NCBI GenBank assembly: GCA_018829445.1
Contig: JAHJTV010000025.1
Coordinates: 18,587 to 82,586, forward strand
Direction of reading: 5' to 3'
DNA: 64,000 nucleotides
From: a bacterium
GTDB lineage: Bacteria; SAR324; XYD2-FULL-50-16
Both the position numbers and the translations under genes were made by a program. Shown in pieces: positions 34,043-45,437 of the stretch. Position 1 is the stretch's first letter. Each line of letters starts with the position of its first letter. The notes under the pieces are model-generated. The model worked only from the letters and a program-made list of their open reading frames with translations, made no database searches and was not told the origin of the DNA.

Positions 34043-34807
34043 TTACTGATGACTGAACAGGCGATCAACGCACTGCCTGACAGCTTTCATAGATTGAGTT
34101 TCCCCCATCTCCAACAGACTTTTCCCTTCGATATCAAACTGCCTCAACAGATCATCTTCGGAGAGCCAACCGAATAGATCCAGGTTTATTTTTGAGGTTA
34201 AAAGGCTCAACTCCTCCTGTTTGACCCGGTTGAAAAAAATCCCTTTTGCTTCGTGTTTAATCGACTTATCTGCCACCGCTGCGATGGTGTGAGCCACATT
34301 GATCCCTTTTTGAGACCCATCGGATACCAGCAGAAGATGCGTAACCGATTCCATTACCCGGCGATTAACCTGCTCTATGCCAGCTTCGCCATCGATAACA
34401 ACAAAATCGAAATTCCGGGAGAGAGATGCTATTAAATCCCGCAAAATCGCGTTAACCTGACAATAGCATCCCTCTTTTTCCGGCCTGCCAATGGCTAAAA
34501 ACGCCAGATTTTCCCGTTCCTCTATCGCCTCCAGCAAGTCATAATCCAGTTGTTTTGTTATCTGAGAAGAGTCGCCTGCAGTTCTTTTTTTCAAGCGGTC
34601 AATCAGTTCATTGCGAATATTGTCGACCGAATTCCCGATTTTAAAACCAAGCGAGGTGGCCAGGCCGATGGCCGGATCTGCATCAATGGCCAATATCCTG
34701 TTGGATCTGTTTTCCATCAGAACTCTTGTTATCAAGGCTGACAGGGAGGTTTTTCCAACTCCACCTTTACCGCATAGAGCTACTATCTTTGGTTGTTTAT
34801 CAATCAT
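34043..34807 (-). CDS. CooC-type nickel/metal-cluster maturation ATPase
   Basis: MinD/CooC-family P-loop ATPase of 254 residues. The deviant Walker A CGKGGVGKT (about 12-20) and GEAGIEQVNRRVM lie as expected, and IGRPEKEGCYCQVN contains the CxC metal-binding motif (Cys114, Cys116) that CooC uses to bind metal between two subunits. CooC inserts nickel into CO dehydrogenase; AcsF does the same for acetyl-CoA synthase. No CODH genes lie here, but the next gene upstream encodes an acetyl-CoA-synthase-like fragment, so the client is probably that protein or a reductase component. It is the last gene of the nine-gene cluster, with 1 bp between it and its neighbour. Confidence 0.85.
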   Translation of the reverse strand: MIDKQPKIVALCGKGGVGKTSLSALITRVLMENRSNRILAIDADPAIGLATSLGFKIGNSVDNIRNELIDRLKKRTAGDSSQITKQLDYDLLEAIEERENLAFLAIGRPEKEGCYCQVNAILRDLIASLSRNFDFVVIDGEAGIEQVNRRVMESVTHLLLVSDGSQKGINVAHTIAAVADKSIKHEAKGIFFNRVKQEELSLLTSKINLDLFGWLSEDDLLRQFDIEGKSLLEMGETQSMKAVRQCVDRLFSHQ

Positions 34808-34808
34808 T

Positions 34809-35540
34809 TCAGGCGGAGTCCTCTTTCATTTTCTGTTTGCGCATGATCCGCAGTTCCTCAACATCCCTGCAAATATCACTGTAATCACAGGTATCACAAT
34901 CAACCAGGGCTTCGTTGAGCATTTTATTCATGGCCTCGATGATTCGTAACACCCGGGCAGCGATGGGCAAGAATCTGTCCAGCAATTCCGGGGAGGTTAT
35001 AAAGACAATCTCTATGGCTTTGACATATTCCAGGTTCCTGTACTGGCGTATTAACACGTTGCCCAATGTACGAAAGGAAAATCCCTTGTCCATGGCGTCG
35101 TTGCTGATTCTGCTCCACTCGCGAAGAAACTGTGAAGCGCCGCGCTTCATATATCCCTTCAAGTCGGTTTGATACTTAACCTCCTCCAATTCCCTGAAAA
35201 GCTGATAATCACTTTTTTGATCGGAATTCTCCAATTCCAGCAAGATCACCTGGCCAAAAGGGATACTCATTCCTTTCGATTCCCGCAATGACGGTCCAAA
35301 AACGGAAATAGTACCGTCGTTTACTTTACCCGGTTTATCGGTCCAGACCATAAAGGAAGCTGACCTTGTTTTCGGACTGCCCAATTCGACGGCAGTATCC
35401 TGTTTTAAAACGAAGTTTGCACCTCCACCCTTTGGCCAGATGTCAGTTGGTGAATATAGACAACGATCAACAACCTCCTCGACAAGTTCCGTTTTGAGGA
35501 GGTTGGACAGATCGACAAGCGGTTTATCGAAGATGGACAT
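34809..35540 (-). CDS. Truncated acetyl-CoA-synthase (CdhC/AcsB)-like protein with a Cys triad
   Basis: 243 residues that resemble the middle domain of the CO dehydrogenase/acetyl-CoA synthase beta subunit: VELGSPKTRSASFMVW, then DGTISVFGPSL, IPFGQVILLEL, EWSRISNDAMDKGFSFRTLGNVLIRQY and AIEIVFITSPE. After this, C215-DT-C218-DYSDI-C224 stands where ACS has its A-cluster cysteines (CTLC-x8-C). The protein then stops, lacking the downstream CGC nickel motif and the rest of that domain. An [4Fe-4S] cluster is plausible, but acetyl-CoA synthesis is not. It is directly adjacent to a CooC-type gene and to two dehydratase activases. Confidence 0.7.
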   Translation of the reverse strand: MSIFDKPLVDLSNLLKTELVEEVVDRCLYSPTDIWPKGGGANFVLKQDTAVELGSPKTRSASFMVWTDKPGKVNDGTISVFGPSLRESKGMSIPFGQVILLELENSDQKSDYQLFRELEEVKYQTDLKGYMKRGASQFLREWSRISNDAMDKGFSFRTLGNVLIRQYRNLEYVKAIEIVFITSPELLDRFLPIAARVLRIIEAMNKMLNEALVDCDTCDYSDICRDVEELRIMRKQKMKEDSA

Positions 35541-36317
35541 CTATACTCTCTCTTCTGCCAGAAGAGCGGCTCCGATGGCACCGTTAACCTGGGGATCGAT
35601 ACCACTAAGCCTTTTCAATTCCAGATTCAGTCCCTGCGAAAGAGCTTTAAAAACACCACTGTTTTTCGCCACACCACCGGTCATCACAATATCCTGATCA
35701 ACCCCGATACTTTTAGCCAACGAGGCAACCCGGTTTGCCAGCGCAATGTGCAGGGCTTTGACAATGTCACAGGTTTCTTTGCCTTCGTTTTGGAGTGAAA
35801 CCACTTCTGTTTCAGCGAAGATAACACACTGATTGGAGATGATAAGCTTTTCAGTGGAACGATCACCGATCTCTCCCATCTTTTCCAGTTCAATTTCCAG
35901 GGATTTGGCCATTACCTCCAGAAAACGTCCAGTGCCCGATGCACATTTATCATTATAGATATAGCGAATTACCTTTCCCTGCTCATCAAGGCGGATTGCC
36001 TTTGCATCCTGCCCTCCGATATCGATCACCATACGAGTCGATGGTAAGTTCCACCAGGCTCCTTTAGCATGGCAAACAATCTCCGATTCCACTTCGTTGA
36101 CAAAATCGATTCTCTCCCTCCCATAACCGGTTCCGATGGCAAAGGAGATATCGCTCATCTTCAGGGAAGCTTTTTCCAGGGCAAGCTGCATCACTTTCCT
36201 GGCAGATTCTTCCGGTTTCGCATGGGCGGGGATCACCACCTGTGATAAAATCCTTCCCTGCTCCAAAATGGCTGCTTTTGCTGTAAGTGATCCGACATCA
36301 CATCCTGCTACTGGCAT
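35541..36317 (-). CDS. BadF/BadG/BcrA/BcrD-type ATPase, dehydratase activase (2)
   Basis: 258 residues of the ASKHA-fold activator family that uses ATP to inject an electron into 2-hydroxyacyl-CoA dehydratases or benzoyl-CoA reductase. The nucleotide motifs AGCDVGSLTAKAAIL, VIDIGGQDAKAI and MTGGVAKNSGVF are present. The cluster ligands are Cys125 (NDKCASGTGRFLE) and Cys164 (SNQCVIFAETEV), two per subunit, so that a dimer shares one [4Fe-4S]. ATG 36317 has AGAGG at 6-bp spacing, while the frame is open to a TTG at 36335. It abuts the ACS-like gene downstream and is separated from the first activase by 362 bp with repeat copies. Confidence 0.92.
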   Translation of the reverse strand: MPVAGCDVGSLTAKAAILEQGRILSQVVIPAHAKPEESARKVMQLALEKASLKMSDISFAIGTGYGRERIDFVNEVESEIVCHAKGAWWNLPSTRMVIDIGGQDAKAIRLDEQGKVIRYIYNDKCASGTGRFLEVMAKSLEIELEKMGEIGDRSTEKLIISNQCVIFAETEVVSLQNEGKETCDIVKALHIALANRVASLAKSIGVDQDIVMTGGVAKNSGVFKALSQGLNLELKRLSGIDPQVNGAIGAALLAEERV

Positions 36318-36401
36318 GTTAATCCTCTGGTTCAATTTGTAAAATAACCCAAAAGGGGTGACTTTTTTTAATACAAAATCATGAAAGCTAATGGTTAGGA
36401 G

Positions 36402-36448
36402 ACTTTACATCGCAGCCTTAGAGTTAATACAGGCAAGGATGTAACCCC
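36402..36448. repeat. Dispersed palindromic repeat, copy 2 (divergent)
   Basis: TTTACATCGCAGCCTTAGAGTT..CAGGCAAGGATGTAACCCC parallels the first two thirds of the copy that follows at 36500. It lies inside the operon, between the two activase genes. Confidence 0.55.
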
Positions 36449-36499
36449 ATAAACACTTAAATAAGGATATTTTTGATGCAAAATCCAGTTTTTCAAAAC

Positions 36500-36580
36500 G
36501 GTAGGGTGGCCTTACATGGCCGCCTTTGAGTTGGTTCTGGCGGGGATGTAACCCCGCCCTACCGTAATCCTTGCTCTTGG
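36500..36580. repeat. Dispersed palindromic repeat, copy 3 (complete)
   Basis: Terminal inverted repeats GGTAGGGTGG / CCGCCCTACC enclose the stem GGCGGGGATGTAACCCCGCC, followed by GTAATCCTTGCTCTTGG. The last phrase recurs in the copy at 45524. The remaining 36,318-36,679 sequence has no gene. Confidence 0.65.
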
Positions 36581-36679
36581 TAATATTTGTTTAAGTAAGC
36601 GTTTATGGGACGTAAACCCGCTCTTCCGTGTTCTTTACGCCAGCAAACTGGCAACCTGACTATGCTGTTGTTCTAATGT

Positions 36680-37468
36680 TTATGCTGACAGCAGTTTTTC
36701 CTGTGCAAACAAAGCTGCCCCTATGGCGCCTGCTAACTGGGGATCGCTTTTTCTGATCTTTCTGATACGGCATCCCATCAACTGTTCCAAGAGAGACATC
36801 ACTCCCTGGTTTTTAGCAACGCCGCCCGTCATACAGATATCATTCTCAGGCTTGATCGAATTGGCCAAGGTGGCAATTCGTTTTGCCATGGCTAGGTTTA
36901 TTCCCGCTCCGATATCTTCAATGGGAACACCCGAATTAATCTGTTTGATCACATCTGCCTGAGCCCAAACCGTGCAGGTGGATGCCAAAGTCACCGGGGA
37001 TTTTGACCGGGAGGATTGTTGTCCCAGTTCACTGATATCGATTCCCAGAACCTGTGCCATCACTTCCAAAAAACGACCGGTTCCCGAAGCGCATTTGTCA
37101 TTGGTGACAAACCGGGTGGCCGTTCCTGATTCATCAATTTTAATCACCTTACAATCCTGTCCGCCGATATCGATAATAGTTTTCACTGAGGGTAGCAGCC
37201 ATTTTGCTCCTTTTCCATGGCAGGCAATTTCAGATTTGACTGCATTGACAAAAGCGAGTTTTTCTCTTCCATAGCCGGTACCGACGCAATACTCCATCTC
37301 TTTTTCCGAGAGGTCGGCTTTGGCAAATAACTCCTCCATGGCAATTCGGGCGGATTCCTGTGGCTTGGCTTTTGATCGAATCAGACTGGTGCTGATCAAC
37401 CGATTGTCTTTTAATAACACTGCTTTTGTGGTCAAAGACCCCACATCACACCCTGCCACTATTGTCAT
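36680..37468 (-). CDS. BadF/BadG/BcrA/BcrD-type ATPase, dehydratase activase (1)
   Basis: 262 residues, a paralogue of the second activase with clearly different sequence. ASKHA motifs are GCDVGSLTTKAVLL, IIDIGGQDCKVI and MTGGVAKNQGVM; cluster cysteines are Cys126 (NDKCASGTGRFLE) and Cys165 (STCTVWAQ). Two unlike activases in one cluster suggest a heterodimer, as for BcrA/BcrD or BzdP/BzdQ of ATP-dependent benzoyl-CoA reductase, instead of the homodimer of HgdC. Its ATG overlaps the stop of the 466-residue subunit by 4 bp, which indicates translational coupling. Confidence 0.92.
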   Translation of the reverse strand: MTIVAGCDVGSLTTKAVLLKDNRLISTSLIRSKAKPQESARIAMEELFAKADLSEKEMEYCVGTGYGREKLAFVNAVKSEIACHGKGAKWLLPSVKTIIDIGGQDCKVIKIDESGTATRFVTNDKCASGTGRFLEVMAQVLGIDISELGQQSSRSKSPVTLASTCTVWAQADVIKQINSGVPIEDIGAGINLAMAKRIATLANSIKPENDICMTGGVAKNQGVMSLLEQLMGCRIRKIRKSDPQLAGAIGAALFAQEKLLSA

Positions 37469-38865
37469 AATAATCCCCTGATAGATAAAAACTCTTCCAA
37501 TCGGTTAACCGTGCTTTCCCATGATTCAACCCGATCATCAAAGGCATCGCCATTCATAATGTGAACCGGGAACCCTGCCTTTTCCACCTCCCTGGCAAAC
37601 GGTTTGACCATACCCCAGGTATTTCGACAGCCAGGTGTGCCGTTATAGACAACGCAATCCGCATGATAGAGGCGTGCCAGGGAAATGGATTCTTCCAGCC
37701 ACATATTGGGTTTATCAAAGGGGCCCCGAATGGACCGAACCATGGGAAGGGTGGCATTCATCTCCGACAGGCTTGTCAACATCGTTTCAAAGGTGCTGGT
37801 ATCAATGCCGTAGGTCGATTTCTCAAGTTCTGAAGCATAGCGGGTGTTATCCCGAAAATTTCTCGACAGAATTCCCCCGAGATGACTGATTCCCCGTCGA
37901 TTAAGCCAGTCGAAAAAGTCAAGATTCAAGGTGTAATGATCAATATAGCACATAAACACCCTGGCTTTCTCCTGCTCGAAATGCAAACCGGTAATACCCT
38001 TTTGAGCATTCTGCTGAACCTTTTCCAGCATCAGCTCCAGCAATTCTGTGTATTCGGGAAGACCCGCCGAGATAAACCGTCCAATGTAGATGAACAGGTT
38101 GAAGATAACCGGAATCGGATTGGGAACCAGGCAATAAAAGTCCTCGATTTCGGCTAAAATGTCATCCTGTTTATCAACCTCTTTCAAAACCTCTCTCAGG
38201 CGATCCACATCCAGATCTTTTCCAGTCTGCTCCTTTAAAAAAGTTATGAGATCCTTGTAATCGTCCAGGTGATACTTCCTGGTCTTCTCATCACCAATAG
38301 TCTGAGGGTAATTCAACTGAAAAAAGGGTTTCTCCATAAAGGTAGATGCAAAAGCAAAGGCATTAGCATTGGTATCGCACACACCCGGGGTATCACACAC
38401 CAGAAAATCGATCTCTTCGCCTAATCCGGCCAGGTAAGCCCCCAAAGCTCCCCGCTGCGAGGAACAGGAAGTCTCGGTAAATCCAAGTTCACACCCGTAA
38501 TCCAGGTAATCATAAGCTCCCCTTTTCCAGAGCAATCCTGCCAATCCCGTCATGACCTCCAGCGTTACCGGAACAATATTCATGGCGTGAAACAGCGCCG
38601 GGGACAAGCAGAAAGTGATGGCCGAAATCTTTTTACTGTTTTGATGGGCTGTAAGGATGTTATCAAAGTATTTATCCAGCAGTCGAATAAAGCAGGTACC
38701 CACTTCGCCTTCCCTGAGCAGGACACTCAGGGTTCCCTTGAAATAGGGAATATAGTTAGTGAGATACTGAATCTCCTTTTCCGAACTATTACCGATTTCG
38801 GAGGCAACCTTCAGCAGACTTCCCAGCATCCAATCATAGTTATATTCCTTGATCTCCGGTCTCAT
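37465..38865 (-). CDS. 2-hydroxyacyl-CoA dehydratase/benzoyl-CoA reductase-like subunit, large
   Basis: 466-residue member of the HgdB/BcrB/BzdO-like D-component family that carries a [4Fe-4S] cluster for ATP-driven one-electron chemistry. Recognisable positions are NIVPVTLEVMTGLAG, ETSCSSQRGALGAYLAG, DFLVCDTPGVCDTN and CVVYNGTPGCRNTW, each with a conserved-looking Cys, and HYTLNLDFFDWLNRRGISHLGG late in the protein. Its size is close to BzdO. Whether it acts on an aromatic ring or a 2-hydroxyacyl-CoA cannot be decided from the sequence. It is 14 bp after the 379-residue partner subunit. Confidence 0.85.
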   Translation of the reverse strand: MRPEIKEYNYDWMLGSLLKVASEIGNSSEKEIQYLTNYIPYFKGTLSVLLREGEVGTCFIRLLDKYFDNILTAHQNSKKISAITFCLSPALFHAMNIVPVTLEVMTGLAGLLWKRGAYDYLDYGCELGFTETSCSSQRGALGAYLAGLGEEIDFLVCDTPGVCDTNANAFAFASTFMEKPFFQLNYPQTIGDEKTRKYHLDDYKDLITFLKEQTGKDLDVDRLREVLKEVDKQDDILAEIEDFYCLVPNPIPVIFNLFIYIGRFISAGLPEYTELLELMLEKVQQNAQKGITGLHFEQEKARVFMCYIDHYTLNLDFFDWLNRRGISHLGGILSRNFRDNTRYASELEKSTYGIDTSTFETMLTSLSEMNATLPMVRSIRGPFDKPNMWLEESISLARLYHADCVVYNGTPGCRNTWGMVKPFAREVEKAGFPVHIMNGDAFDDRVESWESTVNRLEEFLSIRGLL

Positions 38866-38879
38866 ATATTTTCCCTGTT

Positions 38880-40019
38880 TTATGAAATACGTTCCAGAAA
38901 GGCATCAATCCGCATTTTGATACGCCCGGTTTCCGTCAGAGGGCCGTACTCCCGCTCCAGTTTGAGACAGGGCACGCCCACTTTTTCCAAATCTCTTTCA
39001 AAAAGTCCATTTTCCGAGCCATGGAGATCACAGAATCGGATATTCTGCAGAATGACCCCATCCACTTTGCAGGTCTCTATCTTTTTTTTCATCAGGGTCA
39101 ACCGTTCTCCGTATTTTCCGAACATCCGGGGACAGGTCGACTCTCCCAGGTAAAACCGGGCCAGAGCCCTGAGCGGATCATCATTTATTGAAATTTCATT
39201 CTCCTCCTGACGTACACCGAAACAAAGGTTATCCGCCACCACCACTGCCTTGTTATTGCTTTCAACCAGGCTGACCAGCTCAATATCATCACTGATGCTG
39301 CCGATCAGCATCAACCTTTTTTTATGTTTGTGGGTATCGGTAGCGTTGGTTTTGAGATTCTCCACATACTGCTTCAACTCGTTATTAAAATCATCTCTCC
39401 ACATGACTGTGCCTGCCACTGCTACGGCAAAGGCTTCACTCCCGGAGAGGGGAACCGATTCTTTCCTGCGAAGCCCTTCCAGCTCATCCATCAGCCTGCG
39501 ACCGGTATTATACACTTCAATTGATGCGTTGATTTTATCTTGGTCAAGCCGGAGATTATACTTTTCCTCAACTGCTATTTTCAGGGCGGTGATCTCATCC
39601 ACAAACCAGTCGATCCGATGGGAAACCGTTTTATGGGGCACATCCAGGTAATGGAAAAAACCCGGAACAATACCGTCATAATCTTCACCCGCCTTCTGCC
39701 AGCATTCATATAACCGTCGCATGGAGTCACATCCCGGGGTAATGACAACACCATCCAATATGGAAAACTTGCCATGCCCGGCCAGTTGCAGAATACATTT
39801 GGGAAAAGAGCAGATATAAGGGCCAAAATAGGAGTCCCCAATCTCCATCCCTTCCGTTTCAATGCCCCTCAGACGCATTGAGAGGATACCGGCAGCATGG
39901 AATATCTCCGAGGGAACATAGGAACAGCTGTATCCGATGACGGGTTTTCCTTCATCTTTCCACTGCTCCAGATCGGGAAAATTTATACTGGTTGCTGCCT
40001 GCAAGAATCTTGAATTCAT
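38880..40019 (-). CDS. 2-hydroxyacyl-CoA dehydratase/benzoyl-CoA reductase-like subunit, small
   Basis: 379 residues, the expected length for HgdB/BcrC/BzdN-like subunits. Conserved elements are KPVIGYSCSYVPSEIFHAAGILSMRL near the N-terminus, YICSFPKC, TPGCDSMRRLYECW, and the late DGVILQNIRFCDLHGSE-x-x-LFERDLEKVGVPCLKLEREYG. Several of these cysteines occupy the cluster-ligand positions of the family. The start ATG overlaps the stop of the preceding 479-residue protein (ATGA). With the large subunit and two activases it forms the core of an ATP-driven reductase or dehydratase. Confidence 0.88.
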   Translation of the reverse strand: MNSRFLQAATSINFPDLEQWKDEGKPVIGYSCSYVPSEIFHAAGILSMRLRGIETEGMEIGDSYFGPYICSFPKCILQLAGHGKFSILDGVVITPGCDSMRRLYECWQKAGEDYDGIVPGFFHYLDVPHKTVSHRIDWFVDEITALKIAVEEKYNLRLDQDKINASIEVYNTGRRLMDELEGLRRKESVPLSGSEAFAVAVAGTVMWRDDFNNELKQYVENLKTNATDTHKHKKRLMLIGSISDDIELVSLVESNNKAVVVADNLCFGVRQEENEISINDDPLRALARFYLGESTCPRMFGKYGERLTLMKKKIETCKVDGVILQNIRFCDLHGSENGLFERDLEKVGVPCLKLEREYGPLTETGRIKMRIDAFLERIS

Positions 40020-41455
40020 AATTGCCCCTCATTGCCCAATAACAAGAATCGTAAAGCCTTTCTGGCTTCCGCCGCCTGATCTTCAAATTCATCCTCCTCC
40101 GGTTTCAAGATTTCGCAAACCCCCATGACCAACCTGGGCAAAATGGCCCTGCCCAAGGGTTTGATGGCACCTTCCAACCCGGTGCCAAGATTCAAAACCA
40201 TCTCCTGCAACTGCACAAGATCCACCTGCTGAACAATCTGGTTGCTGAAAGCTGCAAGCAAATCAGGTTGCGCTAAGGAGATCCTTTCAAGCAGACGAGC
40301 CGATGATTCCACCACTTCCGACAGCTCTTGCTTGTCCAGGTCTGTCATCATTGATTGCAGCAGTTTATCGAACTCCTGATCCTGCAGGTCTTCTATCACC
40401 TTTAGCTTTTGGTTAAGGGACTGCAGCCGACTATTGGATCTGGCTGTTCGATAGGACAGATGCTGATGCAACCGCTCCGGCTCCGAAAAAAGAGTTTCAA
40501 AGAGGTGAAACTTGATTTTATCCCAATCCTTGAGTAGTGCCAGCCGGGCTTTTATCATTATCGTTTCATCCAGGCCGCTTAAAACGGAGGTTAACAAACT
40601 TGAAACATCCGCCGCTAACCTGGGTGTACCAGGGTCTCCCACAAGGGCACTACCGGTTTCTATTTTTCTTGCAAGTTCAAACAGATTGTTGAGGGAATCG
40701 GAGACATCATCAGGGTTAATCTCTTTAATCAGAGAGAGCACGATATCTGCAACAAGATCGGGAGGGGCTTGATTAAAACCGGAAAGAATCACCGTCAGGC
40801 TCTTCAACAGGGTATTTGAGCAAAAGGGGACAAAGGAGAGCAGTATCACCAGTTTCGCCGGGTATTTCCAGATGAGGCTGTTGCACGCTTTGACAGCCTC
40901 AATCATACTGTCCTGTGATGTTTCAAGCAGCTCCTTCAACTCACCAAAATCCACCTTGGTAATCCAATTGGAAACCATGGATTCAACCAGGCGGGGCAGA
41001 AAGTGCTTATCTGCTGTCTGGACTGTTTTGAGCAACCCCACAATAGATCCGAAGATTTCACCGGTTTGTGCGGTAGCCAGACTATTCGCAAAATTGGTGA
41101 GAGTCGCAATTTTCAACTCCGGGGATTGTTTCTCAAATTCTCTGAAAAAGGTTTCCAGCAAACCGATGGTGCCCTGTATCACATTTGGGATCTGCCCGGT
41201 CAGAAGTTTCATGAACTCCGGATCCTTAAAAAGGCTCTGTACCCCGGTTGCTGCTGTTTCATCGGTGCTTAAAAGGTTCTCAACTCGATTGGTGAGGAAT
41301 CCTGCAGCTTTTTTTCTGATTGCTTTTTCACCAGCCCATGAGTCTAGAATCTCACCGGTAAATACCCTGGTAAACTTCTTCATTTCAGCTGTTTTCATAA
41401 TCTCAGCCAGGATGATACCCATGGTTTCACTTCCCTTATTGATAGATGCCTGCAT
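40016..41455 (-). CDS. All-helical protein of unknown family within the dehydratase cluster
   Basis: 479 residues with no recognised family. It appears entirely alpha-helical with amphipathic repeats of about 35-45 residues (for example LPRLVESMVSNWITKVDFGELKELL and LSQLDEQ-type segments SNQIVQQVDLVQLQEMVL), which suggests a HEAT/ARM-like solenoid. It has three cysteines only, no signal peptide and one mildly hydrophobic stretch (KLVILLSFVPFC). It is embedded in the operon, 29 bp after the GMC oxidoreductase and overlapping the small dehydratase subunit by 4 bp, so it is likely a structural or assembly partner of that enzyme. GGAG precedes the ATG by 9 bp. Confidence 0.8.
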   Translation of the reverse strand: MQASINKGSETMGIILAEIMKTAEMKKFTRVFTGEILDSWAGEKAIRKKAAGFLTNRVENLLSTDETAATGVQSLFKDPEFMKLLTGQIPNVIQGTIGLLETFFREFEKQSPELKIATLTNFANSLATAQTGEIFGSIVGLLKTVQTADKHFLPRLVESMVSNWITKVDFGELKELLETSQDSMIEAVKACNSLIWKYPAKLVILLSFVPFCSNTLLKSLTVILSGFNQAPPDLVADIVLSLIKEINPDDVSDSLNNLFELARKIETGSALVGDPGTPRLAADVSSLLTSVLSGLDETIMIKARLALLKDWDKIKFHLFETLFSEPERLHQHLSYRTARSNSRLQSLNQKLKVIEDLQDQEFDKLLQSMMTDLDKQELSEVVESSARLLERISLAQPDLLAAFSNQIVQQVDLVQLQEMVLNLGTGLEGAIKPLGRAILPRLVMGVCEILKPEEDEFEDQAAEARKALRFLLLGNEGQL

Positions 41456-41484
41456 CTTTTTTCTCTCCGGATCTCACTCCTGAT

Positions 41485-42777
41485 TCAATTCTTATCCAAA
41501 ATGTGTCTGGCCAGTCTTTTTCCCAGGGCAACCAGTGAAAACGTGGGCGGTAGCCCCCAGGCTTCCGGGATCACCGAACAGTCACAAACATAAAGATTTT
41601 CGGTTTTTGTCTGCAGGTTACTATCCACCACCTCCCCGATTTTAACCGTTCCACCCGGATGAGCCGCCAGATACATACTCCTGTAAATATCCCTGGCCCC
41701 TGCCTTTTTTAAAATCTCCCTCGCCCGTTCAAATCCTTTGTTAAGCTTGTTTTTGTCTTCCTGGCTGATCCGTTTTTTAACTCCACCGCGCCGGGTTAAG
41801 CTCCCCCCCAGATCATCCCTGGCTTTCACCATAATCGTGAGGGTTCTGTCATGGGAAAACAATCTCTGCGGTTTTAAAGCCCCCACATTAAAGGCTCGAA
41901 ACAAGGTTCCGGTCATGGTCATATCTGTCATAAGATATCCCTCCTCCTCCATATGAATGCCCGTGGCCATTGGAATTTCCCTGCCACCCCCCGGAATTCT
42001 GTCGGTTGTGCCCATTACAGCTATCAGGGGATCAAAGAAAAAATCTTTCCCCGTGCCCTCAATGCCGCTATTATTAAGAATTACCGGAGAGCCGATGCCG
42101 CCTGCTGAAATAACCACCAATGGTGCTTCGATCCGGCTTTTTCTGCCATTTTTTTTGATTTCAACCCCAACCACTTTTCCATTTTCGATCAAAACCTTTT
42201 CCACCCTGGTACCGGGAATCAGGTCTGCCCCATTCTCCAACGACTGTTCCACAAAAAGCCGACCGCTCCATTTGGCACCATGAGGACAGCCATAACTGCA
42301 ACGCCAGCATTCAGTCTTACACTTATCCTGGTAAATGAATTTGGGCAGCTTCTTCCAATCGTAGCCCAGTTCCCGGGCACTGTGCATGATCTTCATAGCC
42401 ATGGGGCCCACCAAAGAGTCATCCAGGGGTTGAGTGGGAAGCTCTTTTCCGACCTCCATAACCTCTTTGGAGATATCCACGCCATACTTTTTAAAAAGCT
42501 CAATGGGAGGCTCAAAAGCCGTTCCATAATAAAAAACAGAACTACCACCGGAAATAATCCCTCTGAAAACCGCGGCAAAATCAGGCGTGAACAGCAAACT
42601 TTTACCAGGTATACCGATGGATAACACCGCTTGTATCATATTACCTTTCAGTGGCTTATGCCTCCCCCAATCAACAAGAGCTATCTTTTTACCTGCCTTG
42701 GAAAGCTCCCTGGTAACCGTAGCGCCGCCCGGTCCACTGCCAACCACTATTGCATCATAAGCTTCAGAATTGATCAT
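41485..42777 (-). CDS. GMC-family FAD oxidoreductase
   Basis: 430 residues. The FAD Rossmann motif IVVGSGPGGATVTRELSKAGKKIALVD is at about 11-37, and the C-terminus has the GMC signature DCSVIPEAWGLPPTFSLVALG with the active-site-adjacent AAHPGGTVKIG. A Cys-rich insertion CKTECWRCSYGCPHGAK (about 149-165) resembles an Fe-S or Zn site seen in anaerobic GMC relatives and is not a feature of classical glucose-methanol-choline oxidases. The likely role is oxidation of an alcohol or reduction of a C=C bond with electrons from the reductase system. Second gene of the cluster, 17 bp after the regulator, with a good GAGGGAAG ribosome-binding site. Confidence 0.86.
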   Translation of the reverse strand: MINSEAYDAIVVGSGPGGATVTRELSKAGKKIALVDWGRHKPLKGNMIQAVLSIGIPGKSLLFTPDFAAVFRGIISGGSSVFYYGTAFEPPIELFKKYGVDISKEVMEVGKELPTQPLDDSLVGPMAMKIMHSARELGYDWKKLPKFIYQDKCKTECWRCSYGCPHGAKWSGRLFVEQSLENGADLIPGTRVEKVLIENGKVVGVEIKKNGRKSRIEAPLVVISAGGIGSPVILNNSGIEGTGKDFFFDPLIAVMGTTDRIPGGGREIPMATGIHMEEEGYLMTDMTMTGTLFRAFNVGALKPQRLFSHDRTLTIMVKARDDLGGSLTRRGGVKKRISQEDKNKLNKGFERAREILKKAGARDIYRSMYLAAHPGGTVKIGEVVDSNLQTKTENLYVCDCSVIPEAWGLPPTFSLVALGKRLARHILDKN

Positions 42778-42794
42778 ACTTCCCTCGGATTGAG

Positions 42795-43451
42795 TTATTG
42801 TGTGTTTACCAGTTTTTTAGCAAACCGTTTCTCTGTTTGGGCGTACTCCCTGATCACCATTTCCGCCATCTCACCATTTCGTTTTATCACATACTCAGCA
42901 ACTCGCTGGAATAGTTTCACGTTTTCTTTCAAGTCGTCCTCACGCTGTTGTAGGGAAGCGAATTGGATTCTTCTGTTACTTGGCCAGAGATCTTTGATCA
43001 TTGATTCCAACAGAGGATTACCGGCTGCTTTCATCCCCGCTGCAGCAAATTTGAAAATATAATCATAATACCCTATGGTATCCCTGTTTTTAACGCAGCG
43101 CTCCATATTTGAAAGTGCCTGCTCAATGGCTTCGATATCTGCAACCGTATGATTTTCGGCAGCTCTCAGTGCCACCAGCGCGTATAATTGTTCAAAAATA
43201 TCATAAAACCACTCTATCTGGGCCTCCGATATTTCCGTTACCACAACTCCACGACGTGGAATCAGCTCCACCAGATGATTTCTCTCCAGAATCCTGAAAG
43301 CCTCACGGATGGGAGTGCGACTGATGCCCATCTCTTCAGCTAGCTTTGAATCATATATCCGGGTGCCGGGCTTAAACTCGTTTCTTATTATTTTTTCACT
43401 GATATAATGGGTCACCTGATCAACCAGATTTCCATTGGGTTGAAACGTCAT
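42795..43451 (-). CDS. GntR-family (FadR/FCD) transcriptional regulator
   Basis: 218 residues. The winged-helix domain (about 8-72) contains KIIRNEFKPGTRIYDSKLAEEMGISRTPIREAFRILERNHLVELIPRRGVVVTEI, the GntR signature, followed by an all-helical FCD ligand-binding domain. ATG 43451 has AAGAGAG upstream and starts just before the domain; the frame is open to an ATG at 43526. It is the first gene of the cluster, and a palindrome TTGTATACAA lies 120 bp upstream in the shared control region, so it probably regulates both this operon and the divergent DUF169-SDR pair. The effector is likely a pathway acid or CoA-related metabolite. Confidence 0.93.
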   Translation of the reverse strand: MTFQPNGNLVDQVTHYISEKIIRNEFKPGTRIYDSKLAEEMGISRTPIREAFRILERNHLVELIPRRGVVVTEISEAQIEWFYDIFEQLYALVALRAAENHTVADIEAIEQALSNMERCVKNRDTIGYYDYIFKFAAAGMKAAGNPLLESMIKDLWPSNRRIQFASLQQREDDLKENVKLFQRVAEYVIKRNGEMAEMVIREYAQTEKRFAKKLVNTQ

Positions 43452-43568
43452 AATCTCTCTTGTACTCAAAATACGGTTAAAATGAATAATCCGACCAGCT
43501 CCGGGTGTCGGCAGATATTTCAACAATTCCCTTCATTCATAAATTCCGGAATAAAAATCCTAAAATGA

Positions 43569-43591
43569 ATATTGTATACAAAACACAATAT
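43569..43591. promoter_or_regulatory. Candidate GntR operator between the divergent transcripts
   Basis: TTGTATACAA (43572-43581) is a perfect 10-bp palindrome typical of FCD-GntR sites. It overlaps the longer inverted repeat ATATTGT / ACAATAT (43569-43591). No other gene was found in the 43,452-43,852 gap. Confidence 0.55.
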
Positions 43592-43852
43592 ACATTTTTG
43601 AAAGTTTGTCAATTATTAATTTAATAAGTCCACTCCGATGACGTTTTTTCGAATAGCCAATAATCAATTGTTAATTAAAAACAACCAATGTTTTTTGATT
43701 GGGTAAGCCTGAAGGAAGTGCCAGGACATTCCTACTTTTTACTTAAAAGAGTGAAGCCTGTTCAGAATGATTCCTTCAGACTTTGCTTGACTCTGTTTCC
43801 GATCCCATATAGGGTTGGGAACGAATCCTTTTCAATTTAGCCAGGAGTTGTT

Positions 43853-44623
43853 GTGGACGCGGATTTTAAAAACAGATTTATAAGACTGTGGGATGACTAT
43901 TTCCCCGGCGCAGAACTTCCCATGGGATTTTACTATGCAGATCGGGATTGCGGAATAGAAAAAAAGAAAAAGACCGGAAACCATAGTTGTTTAATCGCCG
44001 ATCTTTCAGCTGTCCGTCGGGGAAAAGCTCTCTGTTTTAATAAGGAGTCAATCGGTTGTGTCGGAGGTGTTAGATGTTGCGGTTTTCCCTGCGATCAGAG
44101 ACCGGATTTTGAATACTTTCTTTCCTGCGGAATTCCCGGAAAAGTGGAAGGAATCAGATATAAAAAAACACCGCAACTGGTAAAAGAGACTCAGAATCGG
44201 CACCCCCCATTTTCCGCTCCCAAAAGTACAATTGTTTTTAAACGCTGGGACAGCTTTGAAGAGATGGATAACCCGGATGCCATTATTTTTTTTGCAGCTG
44301 CTGATGTCCTTGCCGGCCTGTTTTCCCTGGCAAATTTTGATGAAGGAGATCCGCAGTCGGTGATTGCACCCTCCTGCGCCGGTTGCGCCTCAGTTGTCCA
44401 ATATCCTTACCTGGAATCACAACAGCCTGTACCAAAATCTGTGATGGGTATGTTTGATATTTCAGCACGACCCTACTTGCGGGCAGATCTTTTAACCTTC
44501 ACCGTTCCGTGGAGTAAATTCCAACGTATGGTAAATCACATGGAAGAAAGTTTTTTGATTACCGATGCCTGGATTCGAATCCAAAAGCGACTTAAAAAAC
44601 GATTAACCGGGGATACAACCTGA
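43853..44623 (+). CDS. DUF169 family protein
   Basis: 256 residues starting at GTG 43853, with AGGAG at 5-bp spacing. The protein is Cys-rich: CGIEKKKKTGNHSCLIADL, CFNKESIGCVGGVRCCGFPCDQR, FLSCGIP and PSCAGCASVV. The arrangement 'C-x-x-L-x-x-(A/V)RRGK-x-x-C-x-x-x-x-x-x-C-x-GG-x-x-x-G' matches DUF169 proteins of anaerobes, which are widespread near redox and corrinoid genes but lack a proven function. A metal or cluster-binding role is plausible (inference). It is followed by an SDR dehydrogenase 61 bp downstream and is divergent from the dehydratase operon. Confidence 0.75.
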   Translation: MDADFKNRFIRLWDDYFPGAELPMGFYYADRDCGIEKKKKTGNHSCLIADLSAVRRGKALCFNKESIGCVGGVRCCGFPCDQRPDFEYFLSCGIPGKVEGIRYKKTPQLVKETQNRHPPFSAPKSTIVFKRWDSFEEMDNPDAIIFFAAADVLAGLFSLANFDEGDPQSVIAPSCAGCASVVQYPYLESQQPVPKSVMGMFDISARPYLRADLLTFTVPWSKFQRMVNHMEESFLITDAWIRIQKRLKKRLTGDTT

Positions 44624-44684
44624 AAAAAGTTTTTGCCTTAGTTTGTCTGCCTTATAGAAAAACACTTTAACCGAAGGAGATACC

Positions 44685-45437
44685 ATGGGACTATTATCCA
44701 ATAAAGTAGCGCTTATTACAGGATCAAGCAGGGGAATCGGCGCTGCGACCGCCAAATTGTTCGCCGAAAACGGGGCTGCTGTGGTTGTTAATTATGTGTC
44801 CAACTCAGAAGCGGCTGATCTGGTTGTTGCAGATATTGTTGAGGTCGGAGGAAAAGCGATCGCCATTCAGGCTGATGCGGCTGATCAAAATCAGGTAAAG
44901 AAGATGGTGTCAAAAGCTATCAATGAGCTGGGAAAGATAGATATCCTGGTACTGAACGCAAGTATTACGTTTCCGGTTGTCCCCTTTTTAGAGTTCAAGT
45001 GGGAAGATTTTGAGTATAAGCTGACCAGGGAGCTGAAAGCGGCTTTCTTCTGTTGCAAGGAAGTAGTGCCCGGTATGATTGAGAAGAAGAAAGGAACCAT
45101 CGTCGCAGTTTCAAGTGGCCTTTCCCGGCAGCCAGGCCCGGGGTTTATTGCACACAGCACAGCCAAATCAGGATTGGATTCGTTTGCAAAATCATTAGCC
45201 ATGGAACTCGGCCCCCACGGAATTAGAGTTAATGTCATTGCGCCGGGGCTTACCCTTACTGATGCCACAGCATTTCATCCCGAGGAGATAAAACAAATAA
45301 TAGCTGCCAATACACCTTTGCGCCGGCTTGCGAAGCCGGAAGATATCGCAGGTGCCATTTTGATGATGGCCAGTGATCACAGCGAGTTCGTTTCGGGTAC
45401 CTACACTCCGGTCAGCGGTGGCATGCAGATGGAATAG
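44685..45437 (+). CDS. Short-chain dehydrogenase/reductase (FabG-like)
   Basis: 250 residues, classical SDR length. The nucleotide motif ITGSSRGIGAATAKLF is at about 12-27, NASITFPV stands at the NAG position, and the catalytic Ser-Tyr-Lys region reads VSSGLSRQPGPGFIAHSTAKSGLD. The expected catalytic Tyr of Y-x-x-x-K is replaced by His (HSTAK), which is unusual and could change activity. It would normally reduce a keto or hydroxyl group with NAD(P)H. AAGGAG precedes the ATG. With the DUF169 gene it forms a plus-strand pair, probably under the same GntR operator as the dehydratase cluster. Confidence 0.9.
   Translation: MGLLSNKVALITGSSRGIGAATAKLFAENGAAVVVNYVSNSEAADLVVADIVEVGGKAIAIQADAADQNQVKKMVSKAINELGKIDILVLNASITFPVVPFLEFKWEDFEYKLTRELKAAFFCCKEVVPGMIEKKKGTIVAVSSGLSRQPGPGFIAHSTAKSGLDSFAKSLAMELGPHGIRVNVIAPGLTLTDATAFHPEEIKQIIAANTPLRRLAKPEDIAGAILMMASDHSEFVSGTYTPVSGGMQME

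What the first reader, a model, noticed from the sequence alone, without database searches (positions are those of the whole stretch)
34043..45437. ATP-driven dehydratase/reductase cluster fused with acetyl-CoA-synthase-type maturation genes
A co-directional block encodes regulator, GMC oxidoreductase, unknown helical protein, two 2-hydroxyacyl-CoA dehydratase/benzoyl-CoA reductase-like subunits, two unlike activases, an ACS-like protein and a CooC-type ATPase; DUF169 and SDR genes are divergent across a GntR operator. Four gene junctions overlap or are 0-1 bp apart. Heterodimeric activases suggest a BcrA/D- or BzdP/Q-like arrangement. The ACS-like and CooC genes are not part of the class I benzoyl-CoA reductase or HgdCAB operons I know of. 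This combination may be an undescribed low-potential enzyme system in which CooC and the ACS-like protein deliver or hold a metal cluster.
Basis: partly seen in the sequence, partly recalled or inferred. Interest (0 to 1): 0.9.

Follow-up and report, generated by a model that had tools for sequence, protein, structure and literature searches.

The report
ATP-driven reductase with truncated acetyl-CoA synthase
Many uncultured bacteria, most of them likely anaerobic, carry a conserved gene set that joins a predicted ATP-driven, strongly reducing enzyme related to benzoyl-CoA reductase to a shortened relative of acetyl-CoA synthase and its likely metal-loading ATPase; our literature searches did not find it described, and what it acts on is unknown.

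Summary
In detail: one minus-strand operon (GntR, GMC flavoprotein, helical protein, two HGD-D subunits, two activases, ACS-like protein, CooC) with four tight junctions. It is no chance grouping. In 43 loci from Desulfobacterota-like, spirochaete, SAR324-like and other genomes, an activase lies near the ACS-like gene in 34 of 39, HGD-D partners in 33 of 35 and 31 of 34, CooC in 36 of 42. Among 383 genomes all 14 with the ACS-like gene have an HgdB of this lineage, against 3 of 369 without. HgdA keeps all six double-cubane cysteines of BzdN; HgdB has the HadB/BzdO fold and three cluster cysteines. The ACS-like protein forms one group apart from ACS: domain A2 plus three cysteines aligned with the A-cluster's first three, without the nickel ligands. 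Best reading: an ATP-driven system built like class I benzoyl-CoA reductase, with a likely CooC-loaded Fe-S accessory subunit. The substrate is unknown and a dehydratase is not excluded. A metal site at HgdB C86 is not supported. New variant of a known kind.

The parts
34043..34807 (-). CooC-type P-loop ATPase (254 aa); GKGGVGKT Walker A and CXC (C114, C116)
   Evidence: Best solved match CooC 3kje, E 1.5e-13; C114 and C116 in 25 of 25 aligned; CXC in 36 of 36 CooC of these loci listed; 34% identical to one CooC of the genome's own Wood-Ljungdahl cluster
34809..35540 (-). ACS-like protein (243 aa): ACS domain A2 plus C-terminal CX2CX5C (C215, C218, C224)
   Evidence: PF03598 51 bits; profile-profile E 4.9e-10 to full ACS with the cysteines aligned; motif in 43 of 43 short forms outside the window; short forms one group, support 100/100, against 16 ACS rows
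35541..36335 (-). ActB, ASKHA activase (264 aa from TTG; conserved Met7 suggests a start at 36317)
   Evidence: PF01869 191 bits; TIGR00241 above cut-off; C131 and C170 in 22 of 22
36336..36679 (.). Insert between the two activase genes: a dispersed genomic repeat
   Evidence: At least 48 matches in the own genome, itself included
36680..37468 (-). ActA, ASKHA activase (262 aa), 49% identical to ActB
   Evidence: PF01869 194 bits; C126 and C165 in 18 of 18; identity
37465..38865 (-). HgdB, HGD-D protein of the active-site (HadB/BzdO) type with about 50 extra N-terminal residues (466 aa)
38880..40019 (-). HgdA, HGD-D protein with the six double-cubane ligand cysteines (379 aa)
   Evidence: PF06050 282 bits; C32/70/97/266/296/330 align with BzdN C36/73/100/263/293/327 (ligands from PMC11971306); all six in 67 of 69 A-type rows
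40016..41455 (-). Hel479, all-helical protein of unknown function
   Evidence: Model pLDDT 81, helices only; no PDB fold match with E <= 0.001; within 9 kb of the ACS-like gene in 20 of 33 loci with enough flank (L025 and L026 have it slightly further off)
41485..42777 (-). GMC-family flavoprotein (430 aa) with a CX3CX2CX3C motif (C153, C157, C160, C164)
   Evidence: PF00732 and PF05199; each of the four cysteines in 8 of 11; acyl-CoA dehydrogenase genes in its place in other loci
42795..43526 (-). GntR/FCD regulator (probable start at an internal ATG near 43451)
   Evidence: PF00392 and PF07729
43572..43581 (.). Palindrome TTGTATACAA upstream of the regulator, candidate operator (prediction)
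   Evidence: Single occurrence in the window; not found in that exact form upstream of GntR in L050, L052 or L018

Best explanation
The operon most likely encodes an ATP-driven, low-potential reductase built like class I benzoyl-CoA reductase, to which a truncated acetyl-CoA synthase has been added, probably as an iron-sulfur accessory subunit loaded by the adjacent CooC ATPase. Shown by sequence: a double-cubane-type subunit with all six BzdN ligand cysteines, an active-site-type subunit with three cluster cysteines, two different activases with conserved cysteines, and an ACS-like protein with a CX2CX5C site. Inferred electron path: ferredoxin or flavodoxin-ferredoxin, then the ActA/ActB [4Fe-4S] cluster with ATP hydrolysis, then the HgdA [8Fe-9S] cluster, then the HgdB [4Fe-4S] cluster, then the substrate, probably a CoA thioester. 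Inferred further: the GMC flavoprotein, or in other lineages acyl-CoA dehydrogenases, handles an oxidation step of the same pathway. Substrate and direction are not known.
For: HgdA-BzdN cysteine match and R49, R270, H333 conserved at BzdN R53, R267, H330, which contact the distal sub-cluster; BzdN R290 is not matched. HgdB fold nearest HadB and BzdO. Two activases beside the pair, as in BzdPQ. Electron carriers inside relatives' operons: two-cluster ferredoxin (L018), flavodoxin-ferredoxin (L039). An acyl-CoA ligase inside L026. ACS-like/CooC coupling: synteny and co-occurrence with this HgdB lineage, 14 of 14 genomes against 3 of 369. A-cluster cysteine homology of the ACS-like protein. BzdNO was produced in E. 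coli from its two genes, which argues against a pure delivery role.
Against: BzdO His131 is Asn166 in HgdB (by spacing from the cluster cysteine), so the active site is not that of benzoyl-CoA reductase. The six double-cubane cysteines also occur in unlinked paralogues, so they do not by themselves show a reductase. Glu103 of HgdB is lost in three linked loci (L084, L091, L092). L016 has the ACS-like gene alone and L038 has it only with CooC; L016, L017, L050, L084, L091 and L092 lack CooC nearby, the last two near contig ends. GMC and Hel479 are not universal. No complex, cluster or activity was tested.
Confidence: 0.5

Rival explanations
1. CooC and the ACS-like protein form a delivery pair that builds or inserts a metal cluster, possibly with nickel, into HgdA/HgdB and are not part of the working enzyme.
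For: CooC-type ATPases serve nickel-enzyme maturation (recalled); the CXC motif is kept; the ACS-like gene is near CooC in 36 of 42 loci; in L086 and L089 both genes lie away from HgdAB while those genomes hold related HgdAB and activase genes elsewhere (L096, L100), as a trans-acting maturase could.
Against: BzdNO, which has [8Fe-9S] and [4Fe-4S] clusters, was produced in E. coli from its own two genes (PMC11971306, passages; that E. coli lacks such a pair is recalled); HgdB C86, the candidate extra ligand, is Asn, Gly, Met or Leu in several linked systems; CooC is absent near the ACS-like gene in L050 and L084.
Confidence: 0.25
2. The pair is a 2-hydroxyacyl-CoA-type dehydratase in which one activated electron is recycled, with the extra genes serving its substrate pathway.
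Against: Two distinct activases rather than one; HgdA has the full six-cysteine set, two of which are not matched by cysteine in the HadC alignment; HadB and HadC model scores are 31 bits (HgdB) and 149 bits (HgdA) against cut-offs of 750 and 700.
Confidence: 0.15
3. Ordinary HgdAB genes with chance neighbours.
For: L016 has the ACS-like gene alone among unrelated genes.
Against: Recurrent neighbours in 43 loci and gene co-occurrence in 383 genomes, Fisher p 5e-23, not corrected for relatedness; the 14 genomes fall in seven families.
Confidence: 0.01

Closest known systems
Class I benzoyl-CoA reductase, BzdNOPQ / MbdONPQ
   Same: Double-cubane-type subunit plus [4Fe-4S]-type active-site subunit plus two activases; six and three ligand cysteines conserved
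   Different: Below every BCR equivalog cut-off; Asn in place of BzdO His131; extra ACS-like protein, CooC, Hel479, and GMC or acyl-CoA dehydrogenases
2-Hydroxyacyl-CoA dehydratase HadBC / HgdAB with its activase
   Same: Fold and three cluster cysteines of the active-site subunit
   Different: Two unlike activases; full six-cysteine set in HgdA; far below cut-offs
Double-cubane cluster protein DCCP with DCCP reductase
   Same: HgdA's best NCBIfam model (179 bits, cut-off 350); six-cysteine pattern
   Different: Two unlike subunits rather than a homodimer; HgdB has only four cysteines that are invariant in its lineage; extra partners
Acetyl-CoA synthase / CdhC
   Same: Domain A2; three cysteines aligned with the first three A-cluster cysteines
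   Different: Stops there: no later cluster cysteine and no Cys-Gly-Cys nickel ligands; separate group; not in a Wood-Ljungdahl cluster
CooC of carbon monoxide dehydrogenase
   Same: P-loop and CXC motifs; 34% identity to one CooC of the own Wood-Ljungdahl cluster
   Different: Encoded with an HgdAB/activase system, with no CO dehydrogenase gene in this operon

Membership tests
Class I benzoyl-CoA reductase | Six double-cubane ligand cysteines in the N/C subunit | tested here: met
   HgdA C32/70/97/266/296/330
Class I benzoyl-CoA reductase | Three [4Fe-4S] ligand cysteines in the O/B subunit | tested here: met
   HgdB C134/C163/C413, 74 of 75 B rows; equated with BzdO C95/C128/C380 by order and spacing, not by a residue-level structural alignment
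Class I benzoyl-CoA reductase | BzdO His131 near the cluster-bound water | tested here: not met
   Asn166 in HgdB, by spacing from the cluster cysteine
Class I benzoyl-CoA reductase | Equivalog score for BcrB/C or BzdN/O | tested here: not met
   HgdA 132 (BcrC) and 123 bits (BzdN), HgdB 28 (BcrB) and 19 bits (BzdO), cut-offs 421-487
Class I benzoyl-CoA reductase | ATP-dependent reduction of benzoyl-CoA | not testable with these tools
   Needs an enzyme assay
2-Hydroxyacyl-CoA dehydratase | Single (homodimeric) activase; feature recalled | tested here: not met
   Two activases, 49% identical, in the same operon
2-Hydroxyacyl-CoA dehydratase | HadB/HadC equivalog score | tested here: not met
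   31 and 149 bits against 750 and 700
Double-cubane cluster protein | NF040772 above cut-off | tested here: not met
   HgdA 179 and HgdB 32 bits against 350
Acetyl-CoA synthase | A-cluster nickel ligands (Cys-X-Cys) and the fourth cubane cysteine (roles recalled) | tested here: not met
   The protein ends before them; the own full ACS has C526, C593, C595
Acetyl-CoA synthase | ACS domain A2 | tested here: met
   PF03598 51 bits, cut-off 24; hhalign E 4.9e-10
CooC | P-loop and CXC motif | tested here: met
CooC | Nickel binding and action on a nickel enzyme | not testable with these tools
   Needs protein
Plasmalogen synthase PlsA type (features recalled) | Activase and HGD-D regions fused in one polypeptide | tested here: not met
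   Separate ORFs in the window. The genome's two large paired-activase ORFs match the window activases at 24-35% identity (stretches that do not cover the whole ORFs) and have no PF06050 hit; that these two are PlsA-like is not tested

The most novel reading that the evidence does not exclude
Half of the acetyl-CoA-synthase A-cluster has been recruited outside the Wood-Ljungdahl pathway: a CooC-loaded metal site (Fe-S, perhaps with nickel) on a truncated ACS works directly with a double-cubane, ATP-driven reductase, forming a third architecture for biological chemistry at potentials below ferredoxin, widespread in uncultured anaerobes.
Probability: 0.25. Interest if true: 0.92.

Novelty: new variant of a known kind. 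Interest (0 to 1): 0.72.

Why it matters
[quoted passage not shown] An HgdB lineage tied to an ACS fragment and CooC would add a branch with a testable new metalloprotein partner, in uncultured bacteria such as Smithella-titled genomes, and may be a catabolic step that databases now name only '2-hydroxyacyl-CoA dehydratase' or 'benzoyl-CoA reductase' subunit (names).

Tried and rejected
Extra metal site in HgdB through C86: rejected as a shared feature, because linked HgdBs have Cys, Asn, Gly, Met or Leu there. Extra HgdA cysteines C75, C106, C351: confined mainly to the core lineage. Replacement of HgdAB by a tungsten-type enzyme in L086/L089: the L086 neighbour is closest to aldehyde:ferredoxin oxidoreductases, with benzoyl-CoA reductase the weakest of the nine listed matches, and those genomes hold related HgdAB elsewhere, so it is only a lead. 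Split plasmalogen synthase: not supported. Sterol-carrier-like domain in the L090/L092 neighbours: guessed by eye, no Pfam hit. ACS Trp418-type CoA contact: not conserved by eye; numbering recalled. Viral contigs: none of 12 pattern matches encodes a relative. Hel479 fold: no match with E <= 0.001. HgdB tree (quick method): one branch (SH-aLRT 99) parts 14 unlinked proteins from 61 (54 linked, 7 unlinked); since every row comes from a genome that has the ACS-like gene, this is no independent test of coupling; one search is.

Papers: passages only of PMC11971306, PMC13416013, PMC7306483, PMC10418091 and PMC9031357; the last, a SAR324 survey, reports ACS missing in all its genomes, unlike this one. 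None of these passages describes the cluster. Paper searches listed no paper that I recognised as describing it; otherwise I saw listings only.

One HGD-D row of L097 that fits neither group was counted among the A rows. In one search, 39 of 383 genomes match at E <= 0.001; the 14 counted have a match at E <= 1e-30, the other 25 match more weakly and mostly through ORFs of ACS length. The 140-bit limit for the HgdB lineage was chosen after seeing the scores (the own classical paralogue scored 114.5). The three genomes over it without the short gene are 68-89% complete (G083, G137, G277). My notebook says 39 operon CooC with CXC; the recount gives 36.
Full report
WHAT IS THERE. The window holds one minus-strand operon: GntR/FCD regulator, GMC flavoprotein, a 479-residue helical protein (Hel479), two HGD-D proteins (HgdA, HgdB), two BcrAD-type activases (ActA, ActB), an ACS-like protein and CooC. 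Junctions are -4, -4, 0 and 1 bp at four places. The only large gap, between the activases, is a dispersed repeat with at least 48 matches in the genome. DUF169 and SDR lie divergently. The genome belongs to a group of which 52 genomes are held; the nearest named relative that I found is titled SAR324 cluster bacterium (L014). The genome has a separate Wood-Ljungdahl-type cluster with a full ACS and two CooC-like genes.

NOT CHANCE. A genome-contig scan found 30 loci with the ACS-like gene, all titled MAG. Where flanks sufficed, and within 9 kb on the same strand, an activase is found in 34 of 39, a B-type HGD-D protein in 33 of 35, an A-type in 31 of 34, CooC in 36 of 42, Hel479 in 20 of 33. 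Exceptions: L016 (ACS-like alone), L038 (with CooC only), L017, L086 and L089; CooC is missing nearby in L016, L017, L050, L084, L091 and L092, the last two near contig ends. Three pairs of loci share a genome (L015/L017, L018/L030, L083/L084). In a sample of 383 genomes, 14 have the short ACS-like gene at E <= 1e-30. All 14 also have an HgdB of this lineage at 140 bits or more, as do 3 of the other 369 (Fisher p 5e-23, not corrected for relatedness; limit chosen afterwards). Of the ten genomes of the window's own family, five have the gene; of the other 42 in the group none does (one further family member matches only through an ORF of ACS length). Protein searches listed 353 relatives of the ACS-like protein at E <= 1e-5 and 617 of HgdB at E <= 1e-20 (only part of the candidates was scored).

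THE ACS FRAGMENT AND COOC. The 243-residue protein matches ACS domain A2. Profile comparison carries the match into the A-cluster: C215, C218 and C224 align with the first three cluster cysteines of the genome's own ACS, with a three-residue deletion (E 4.9e-10). The chain then ends, so the fourth cubane cysteine and the Cys-Gly-Cys nickel ligands (roles recalled) are missing. All 43 short forms outside the window have CX2CX5C; seven have a further cysteine shortly upstream. Short forms are one group against 16 ACS rows (100/100). CooC keeps the P-loop and CXC motifs. Genome G365, 96% complete, has the short form and no other match to the ACS-like profile, which suggests that the pair does not depend on the Wood-Ljungdahl pathway there.

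CONTEXT. GMC occurs in 16 loci and acyl-CoA dehydrogenase genes on the operon strand in 8, never both (rows; tally); L028, with GMC, has a distant acyl-CoA-dehydrogenase-like gene on the other strand; 19 of the 43 show neither, several cut by contig ends. A number of loci add a second module, HgdA2-HgdB2-activase. Electron carriers occur inside relatives' operons: a two-cluster ferredoxin and a flavodoxin-ferredoxin fusion. L026 has an acyl-CoA ligase. Regulators are GntR or TetR-like by eye. These point, by inference, to an inducible catabolic step on a CoA thioester.

MECHANISM. I favour an ATP-driven reductase with an ACS-derived accessory subunit that CooC loads. The electron path and the role of the ACS-like protein are inferred. 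BzdNO was produced in E. coli from its two genes (PMC11971306, passages), which weakens a pure cluster-delivery role; C86 of HgdB does not track the ACS-like gene, which weakens a heterometal site there. A dehydratase is not excluded. The paper searches listed no paper that I recognised as describing the cluster; most subscription papers are not in that library.

Noticed in passing
window 36336-36679: The ActA-ActB gap is a dispersed repeat with at least 48 matches in the genome; in L050 and L052 the two activase genes are only 15 and 45 bp apart.
   Followed up: partly
L050:5728-9796: A glycyl radical enzyme (994 aa; the same protein was scanned as L014 and L050) and, by eye, its activating enzyme lie convergent to the operon where CooC is missing.
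   Followed up: partly
L054:9023-12523: The own genome's ACS is a 1166-aa ORF; its extra C-terminal part looks (by eye, recalled) like a corrinoid protein subunit fused to ACS; L047-L049 look alike.
   Followed up: no
L086:9436-12307 and L089:10303-13102: The ACS-like/CooC pair lies divergent from a ferredoxin-like gene, an aldehyde:ferredoxin-oxidoreductase-type gene (L086 tested) and a MoaD-like gene (by eye).
   Followed up: partly
L018:11441-14816, L027:11432-16300 and others: A second HgdA2-HgdB2-activase module follows CooC; HgdA2 also has the six double-cubane cysteines.
   Followed up: partly
G000:C44:79950-81422 and G000:C122:6449-7861: Two 1421- and 1494-aa ORFs with paired activase domains, possibly PlsA-like ether-lipid enzymes (recalled).
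   Followed up: partly
L088:4336-7242: A 968-aa molybdopterin oxidoreductase sits between HgdB and HgdA.
   Followed up: no
L039:3432-4572, L085:3547-4903: Small proteins that look like relatives of Hel479 precede it in loci with acyl-CoA dehydrogenases; no Pfam match for the two tested.
   Followed up: partly
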